Positions 11,531 through 11,875 of a stretch of DNA of 64,000 nt are shown here, in pieces. The notes beneath the pieces are model-generated. The model was not told the DNA's origin. It worked only from the letters and a program-made list of their open reading frames with translations, and made no database searches. The translations under genes and the position numbers were made by a program. Source of the DNA: a virus; the IMG/VR virus record IMGVR_UViG_3300044613_004618, positions 1 to 64,000 of that record; one strand, written 5' to 3'. Position 1 is the stretch's first letter, and each line of letters opens with the position of its first letter.

Positions 11531-11875
11531 GGGGGCGAAAGGTATCGACGGGATGAAGAAAGTTTGGACTGCATGCCGTGGTTGGTCGAGAGGCCACGTT
11601 AATACTCGATCAAAATGTTAGTTGGCACTTTCAACAGTGCTCCCGCTCTCGCTGCCTGAGCAGTGATCGGGAGGTGCGCGTGACACCTTCGCCCATCACG
11701 CTGGCCGACTGGAAGAAGTCTGACAGGCTGGAGAGACGGCCAAAGATGGTGGTAGCCCACCTGACGCCAGTAACTCTGGCTGGTTTTGCCTGTAGTGCGA
11801 GCAACAACAGGCTAAGCATGTAGACGGCCTTACCAGGCGCATCACCGGACCCGGGTTCGATTCCCGGCGCCTCCA
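11531..11875 (+). ncRNA. ssrA: Transfer-messenger RNA (tmRNA)
   Basis: The 5' end GGGGGCGAAAGGTATCGACG and the 3' end CGCCTCC plus discriminator A pair over 7 bp, with the G3-U wobble that marks alanine charging. The T arm is CCGGG(TTCGATT)CCCGG. GCATGCCG near the 5' end and CTAAGCATGTAG near the 3' end match bacterial tmRNA. The tag frame follows TTAGTT: GGC resume codon at 11624, reading GTFNSAPALAA and TGA at 11657-11659. CCA is not encoded. It rescues stalled ribosomes and tags products for proteolysis. Confidence 0.96.

What the first reader, a model, noticed from the sequence alone, without database searches (positions are those of the whole stretch)
11531..11875. Phage-encoded tmRNA with tag GTFNSAPALAA
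Full tmRNA with alanine-identity G-U pair, Gly resume codon and a tag ending ALAA. A phage copy could supply rescue during infection or retag products to escape or recruit host proteases. The tag can also point to the host lineage.
Basis: partly seen in the sequence, partly recalled or inferred. Interest (0 to 1): 0.72.

Follow-up and report, generated by a model that had tools for sequence, protein, structure and literature searches.

The report
Jumbo-phage tmRNA with swappable tag core
The window carries a complete gene for tmRNA, the RNA that frees stuck ribosomes, belonging to an uncultured phage family of about 200 kb; phage tmRNAs are already known, but here related phages keep the outer, tRNA-like part of the RNA and exchange the middle part that encodes the degradation tag.

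Summary
A full one-piece tmRNA lies at 11531-11875 (+), Rfam 121.4 bits against a cut-off of 47, with tag GTFNSAPALAA, G3-U70, a conserved A at -4 of the resume codon, pseudoknots supported by compensatory changes, and a strong terminator-like hairpin right behind it. The record is a 127-kb fragment of a myovirus with its own multi-subunit RNA polymerase; the gene is phage-borne. Twelve relatives carry it on the polymerase strand, roughly 30-57 kb upstream. No integrase, SmpB, ClpP or SspB was found, so it most likely works with host SmpB, alanyl-tRNA synthetase and Clp proteases. 'Tag points to host' failed: a pattern for this tag has no match in 84,980 bacterial and archaeal species genomes, and the tag does not follow the phage tree. 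Phage tmRNAs are known, so the RNA is a new member of a known kind. The unexpected part is mosaicism inside the gene: the window's TLD and P2 arms are about 94-96% identical to phage G002, whereas its tag-pseudoknot core is 85% identical to phage G017 and only 62% to G002. Two further chimeras (L113, L115) repeat this. Neighbouring DNA is mosaic too, so selection on tags is unproven.

The parts
11531..11875 (+). tmRNA (ssrA) gene, one-piece, to discriminator A; CCA not encoded
   Evidence: ARAGORN, Rfam RF00023 121.4 bits E 6.8e-47, 12 relatives
11531..11577 (+). shell, 5' half: acceptor strand GGGGGCG, D-like region and 5' arm of long helix P2
   Evidence: 92-93% identical to G002 but 58-63% to G017
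11578..11611 (+). pseudoknot PK1: stem CGUGGUU/GGCCACG and stem GGUCGAG/CUCGAUC
   Evidence: 100% and 98.6% of cells paired, compensatory changes in 2 and 4 pairs
11624..11659 (+). tag reading frame GGC...GCC TGA, peptide GTFNSAPALAA; U at -5 and A at -4 before the resume codon (E. coli U85, A86)
   Evidence: -5U and -4A in 13 of 13 relatives; A86 role from PMC2481249
11669..11701 (+). pseudoknot PK2: GGGAGGUG/CACCU-UCG-CCC with GCGUGA/UCACGC
   Evidence: compensatory changes in 4 of 5 pairs of the S1 inner stem and 6 of 6 pairs of S2
11707..11781 (+). PK3 and PK4 region (reduced hairpins GACU/AGUC, GGCUG/CGGCC, GGUGG/CCACC, GCCAG/CUGGC)
11576..11789 (+). exchanged core cassette: crossovers fall between 11575 and 11589 and between 11744 and 11789
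   Evidence: informative-site string against G002/G017, p = 5e-5, the floor of the test; AU tests
11816..11875 (+). shell, 3' half: 3' arm of P2, T arm, acceptor strand CGCCUCC plus discriminator A
   Evidence: 94-95% identical to G002, 65-67% to G017
11878..11921 (+). terminator-like hairpin, 19 pairs, starting 3 bases after the discriminator A (short T run)
   Evidence: fold of the downstream region -43.6 kcal/mol

Best explanation
It is a working, phage-encoded one-piece tmRNA of a roughly 200-kb, probably virulent myovirus family. During infection the transcript, bounded by the downstream hairpin, would be trimmed and given CCA by host enzymes, charged with alanine by host AlaRS through G3-U70 and loaded by host SmpB onto ribosomes stalled on broken or non-stop mRNAs. 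It would append A-GTFNSAPALAA and release the ribosome, and the LAA end would send the product to host ClpXP/ClpAP. The phage thus keeps the ribosome pool free while nucleases fragment mRNA. In evolution the gene behaves as two modules: a tRNA-like shell (TLD plus both P2 arms) and a core (PK1 loop, tag, PK2-PK4) that homologous recombination exchanges between phages. Shown: gene, structure, conservation, absence of SmpB/ClpP/SspB/integrase in the records searched, intragenic mosaicism. Inferred: expression, charging, rescue and proteolysis.
For: Gene and structure. Phage origin: sheath, baseplate, RNAP and helicase, IMG/VR virus record of 127,388 bases, no tyrosine integrase in 12 records. 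Conservation: 12 of 31 related records have it over the cut-off, always on the RNAP strand upstream; no main-clade record with more than about 37 kb of upstream sequence lacks it. Tag frame kept: in-frame lengths of 8, 9 and 11 codons, ends ALAA or AIAA and -4 A in 13 of 13. Host dependence: no SmpB, ClpP (35), SspB (48). Expression precedent: the tmRNA of mycobacteriophage Wildcat is its most highly expressed lytic gene (PMC7474061). Modularity: shell and core trees reject each other (AU p = 1.2e-4 and 3e-44); window/G002 shell 96%, core 62%; window/G017 shell 66%, core 85%; repeats in L113 and L115; site test p = 5e-5.
Against: No expression or activity data. No sigma-70-like promoter was found near it, though the phage has its own polymerase. 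The flanking DNA is patchy between these phages as well, so the swap may be ordinary phage mosaicism without selection on the tag. All sequences are metagenomic contigs; an assembler could in principle join alleles at conserved stretches, although a double crossover with shells already 2-8% diverged in different contigs argues against it.
Confidence: 0.8

Rival explanations
1. A decoy: the phage RNA competes for host SmpB/AlaRS and blocks host trans-translation, as proposed for the TLD-only RNA of mycobacteriophage DS6A.
For: A phage precedent exists (PMC4131195), and no phage SmpB is present to support extra tmRNA.
Against: Tag frame, stop codon, -4 A, PK1 and PK2 are all conserved with compensatory changes; a decoy would not need them.
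Confidence: 0.07
2. The tag is tuned to retarget tagged proteins (escape from or recruitment of particular host proteases or adaptors), and core swapping follows host changes.
For: Tags differ between otherwise close phages; the part before the last residues varies and does not match the E. coli SspB-binding motif (own knowledge); cores are exchanged while shells stay.
Against: All tags keep the ClpX-type [LI]AA end; hosts are unknown; neighbouring genes are mosaic too.
Confidence: 0.15
3. A host ssrA gene or a prophage attachment remnant, not a phage gene.
For: ssrA is a frequent integration site for temperate phages (general knowledge; also stated in PMC11915505).
Against: Interior of a phage contig with phage genes on both sides, similar position and same strand in 12 related phage records, no tyrosine integrase, tag absent from 84,980 species genomes.
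Confidence: 0.02
4. The shell/core discordance is an artefact of different evolutionary rates or of contig misassembly.
For: The shell evolves slowly and the core fast; all sequences are metagenomic contigs.
Against: The crossing pattern (high shell with low core, and low shell with high core for the same RNA) cannot come from rates; three cases; topology tests and site-run tests.
Confidence: 0.06

Closest known systems
Bacterial one-piece tmRNA (RF00023) with SmpB
   Same: TLD with G3-U70, long P2, PK1, tag frame, downstream pseudoknots, -4 A, ALAA tag end
   Different: Lies in a phage; private tag; reduced PK3/PK4; no detectable DNA match in 399 sampled genomes of the phylum of a Sphingomonas (no positive control, so weak)
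Phage tmRNAs of mycobacteriophages (Bxz1, Cali, Catera, Wildcat) and Bacillus phage G (PMC4131195)
   Same: Complete tmRNA with a tag, in a large phage
   Different: No nucleotide similarity to any of 50,697 phage records; different phage family; three exchangeable core types
Two-piece tmRNA of methylophage Melnitz and pelagimyophages (PMC9004378)
   Same: tmRNA in marine myophages, common but not universal in its group
   Different: Two-piece and riboswitch-associated there; one-piece here and in every record of the main clade that reaches the locus
tmRNAs reported in huge phages (PMC7162821)
   Same: Phages of about 200 kb with translation genes including tmRNA
   Different: That paper also reports phage SmpB; none was found here

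Membership tests
tmRNA (RF00023) | Covariance-model score above the curated threshold | tested here: met
   121.4 bits against 47
tmRNA (RF00023) | tRNA-like domain with Ala-identity G3-U70 and T arm | tested here: met
   Sequence; P1 and T arm pairs. In A3 the P1 counts are depressed by a one-column misalignment of the window row against most others
tmRNA (RF00023) | Tag frame with resume codon and stop, -4 A | tested here: met
   13 of 13 sequences
tmRNA (RF00023) | PK1 and downstream pseudoknots | tested here: met
   PK1 and PK2 with compensatory changes; PK3/PK4 tested only as hairpins
tmRNA (RF00023) | SmpB partner | tested here: inconclusive
   None in 16 phage records; the host is unknown and would have to supply it
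tmRNA (RF00023) | Processed, alanylated, active in tagging | not testable with these tools
   Needs RNA and biochemistry
Phage-encoded tmRNA | Gene lies in a phage genome | tested here: met
Two-piece (permuted) tmRNA | Permuted order with the tag 3' of the TLD | tested here: not met
   Full-length linear match, positions 1-374

The most novel reading that the evidence does not exclude
The tag-plus-pseudoknot core of these phage tmRNAs is a swappable cassette under selection: phages keep a tRNA-like shell fitted to their translation apparatus and exchange the tag to suit different hosts or proteases, with crossovers at boundaries that respect RNA base pairing.
Probability: 0.25. Interest if true: 0.7.

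Novelty: new member of a known kind. Interest (0 to 1): 0.5.

Why it matters
The role of phage tmRNAs is largely untested. A phage family in which the gene appears fixed, while its tag-bearing core is exchanged between relatives with a nearly constant shell, gives natural matched sets (same shell, different tag) to ask what the tag is for: rescue alone, recycling of amino acids, or control of host proteolysis. It also shows that a structured RNA gene can evolve by module exchange at helix boundaries, and it warns against reading the host off a phage tmRNA tag.

Tried and rejected
Host from tag: pattern scans of genome contigs gave 0 for GTFNS[AV]PALAA and 3 for the sister-tag pattern, none a tmRNA. 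Bacterial source of the RNA: no DNA match at E <= 1e-12 in 399 genomes of the phylum of the Sphingomonas genome, weak because no positive control rang. Nucleotide relatives among named phages: none. First viral scans with the exact 5' end and the full degenerate tag gave nothing. The adjacent AAA ATPase as a conserved partner: absent from the 14 relatives searched. tmRNA in the named distant relatives Arash and D69, or in Pumpernickel (which shares the ATPase): only tRNA-like weak matches. RNAP data did not reject the tmRNA tree by AU (p 0.25), although the other tests did. Shell against RNAP Mantel was not significant overall (0.30, p 0.08); only the 3' arm was (0.53, p 0.003). So 'the shell is inherited with the phage' is only partly supported. 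Intragenic recombination in tmRNA: nothing relevant in two literature searches.

Full report
Observation. ARAGORN finds one tmRNA in the window, 11531-11876 +, tag GTFNSAPALAA. Rfam RF00023 is the only family over threshold, 121.4 bits against 47, E = 6.8e-47, model 1-374 complete. Reading the sequence: GGGGGCG pairs with CGCCUCC with a G-U third pair; the discriminator A is 11875; CCA is not encoded. The tag is GGC ACT TTC AAC AGT GCT CCC GCT CTC GCT GCC TGA. A 19-pair terminator-like hairpin follows at 11878-11921 (-43.6 kcal/mol). No sigma-70-like promoter was found.

Setting. The window is the first 64 kb of a 127,388-base IMG/VR virus record. The rest was fetched and a simple gene call gave 124 genes, all on the + strand. 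PHROGs recognises tail sheath, baseplate wedge, tail fibres, a helicase and a multi-subunit-type RNA polymerase. The polymerase's best named relatives are Salmonella phage Arash and Vibrio phage D69 at 33%. No named phage is similar at the DNA level. So it is a myovirus of a group with no close named member.

Relatives. The polymerase protein brought 31 related IMG/VR records up to 229 kb, 29 of them at 71-91% identity and two at 54-57%. Twelve have a tmRNA over the gathering score. In all 12 it lies on the polymerase strand and upstream of it, at roughly 30-57 kb (positions; G024 counted across its contig ends). No main-clade record with more than about 37 kb upstream lacks it; the two divergent records that cover the place (G020, G029) do lack it. 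The gene therefore looks fixed in the clade, usually beside tRNA-Leu and/or tRNA-Glu. The window has lost or lacks those tRNAs; its only tRNA is tRNA-Met at 30222.

The RNA is under constraint. Across ten type II/III sequences, a structure with PK1 and PK2 written as pseudoknots has 89% of cells paired and 40 of 80 pairs with changes on both sides (shuffles 22 +/- 2.5, 0 of 500 reach it; sliding the partner drops pairing to 37-44%). Tags read GTFNS[AV]PALAA, GA[FYS]APALAA, GNTLAIAA and GAPLALAA: lengths 11, 9 and 8, all in frame, all ending ALAA or AIAA, stop TGA or TAG. U at -5 and A at -4 are invariant; the -4 A corresponds to E. coli A86, whose mutation to pyrimidines left no measurable activity in one assay (PMC2481249). 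The commonest tag length in the database is 10 and extremes of 2 are known (PMC11915505), so 8-11 is unremarkable.

Partners. No SmpB, ClpP, SspB or tyrosine integrase was found in the phage records searched, with positive controls ringing. The RNA must therefore use host SmpB, AlaRS, CCA-adding enzyme and Clp proteases (inference). A published precedent for heavy expression of a phage tmRNA in lytic growth is mycobacteriophage Wildcat (PMC7474061).

Tag and host. A pattern for GTFNS[AV]PALAA occurs in none of 84,980 species genomes. The sister-tag pattern has three matches, none in a tmRNA. Tag type is scattered over the polymerase tree, and tmRNA identity is uncorrelated with polymerase identity (Mantel r = 0.09, p = 0.23; the RNAP tree is rejected by the tmRNA data, delta lnL 507). 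The tag is no guide to the host here, and the host remains unknown.

Mosaic inside the gene. Splitting the RNA into a shell (TLD and both P2 arms) and a core (PK1 to P5) gives trees that reject each other: shell data against core tree AU p = 1.2e-4, core data against shell tree p = 3e-44. The window has shell 96% and core 62% identity to G002, but shell 66% and core 85% to G017. Of 100 informative sites between G002 and G017, the first 16 and last 26 all follow G002, while those between follow G017 with few exceptions. Crossovers fall at 11575-11589 (in PK1 stem 1) and 11744-11789 (around PK4/before P5), p = 5e-5, the floor of the test. Pattern scans brought further alleles. L113 has the window/G002 shell, the PK1-tag-PK2 of G025 (GASAPALAA) and a PK3/PK4 like the window's; L115 has the shell of G007 (97%) with a different core (58%) and tag GAFAPALAA. 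One shell with several tags is thus seen for two shells. The two arms of P2 tend to travel together (5' against 3' arm Mantel p = 0.007), as base pairing demands.

Limits. Neighbouring DNA in these phages is mosaic as well, so the exchange needs no special mechanism or selection. The shell follows the polymerase tree only in its 3' arm. All sequences are metagenomic. Expression and activity are untested.

Verdict. A real, very probably functional phage tmRNA: a new member of a known kind (10 phages listed in PMC4131195; 402 phages, 2.3% of those surveyed, in PMC9004378; huge phages in PMC7162821). The modular exchange of the tag core is the part worth following; two literature searches found no earlier report, which is not proof of none.

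Noticed in passing
window 12403-12705 (+): Protein with a cyclic-phosphate processing receiver domain (PF20274, cREC_REC, E 2.9e-20) one gene downstream of the tmRNA; 34-36% relatives lie within 1.5 kb of the tmRNA in three other phages (L038, L042, L046). A possible RNA-repair link.
   Followed up: partly
L002:4667-9043 and L002:10018-11898 (record 68667-75898): Very long multi-subunit-type RNA polymerase proteins (1458 aa plus 626 aa) of a group with only 33% identity to named phages.
   Followed up: partly
L046 and L048 (G007, G016), also L115: T arm of the tmRNA has the loop GGUGCAAAUCC instead of GGUUCGAUUCC, as if converted from a tRNA gene.
   Followed up: no
L108, L112, L116, L118, L121, L122; also L104, L117, L120: Other phage contigs sharing the PK1 motif carry tmRNAs with quite different tags: 32 aa of the type AEQEEADLLAEAEAIFNNPDAFLVQEEALLAA or 9 aa AKPQFAMAA.
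   Followed up: no
window 3422-4039, 5217-5798, 6648-7820 (+): Thymidylate kinase, thymidine kinase and a glycosyltransferase upstream of the tmRNA (Pfam).
   Followed up: no
window 12812-13921 (+): AAA ATPase 47% identical to one in the tRNA array of Microbacterium phage Pumpernickel, yet absent from the 14 relatives of this phage that were searched: possibly a recent acquisition.
   Followed up: partly
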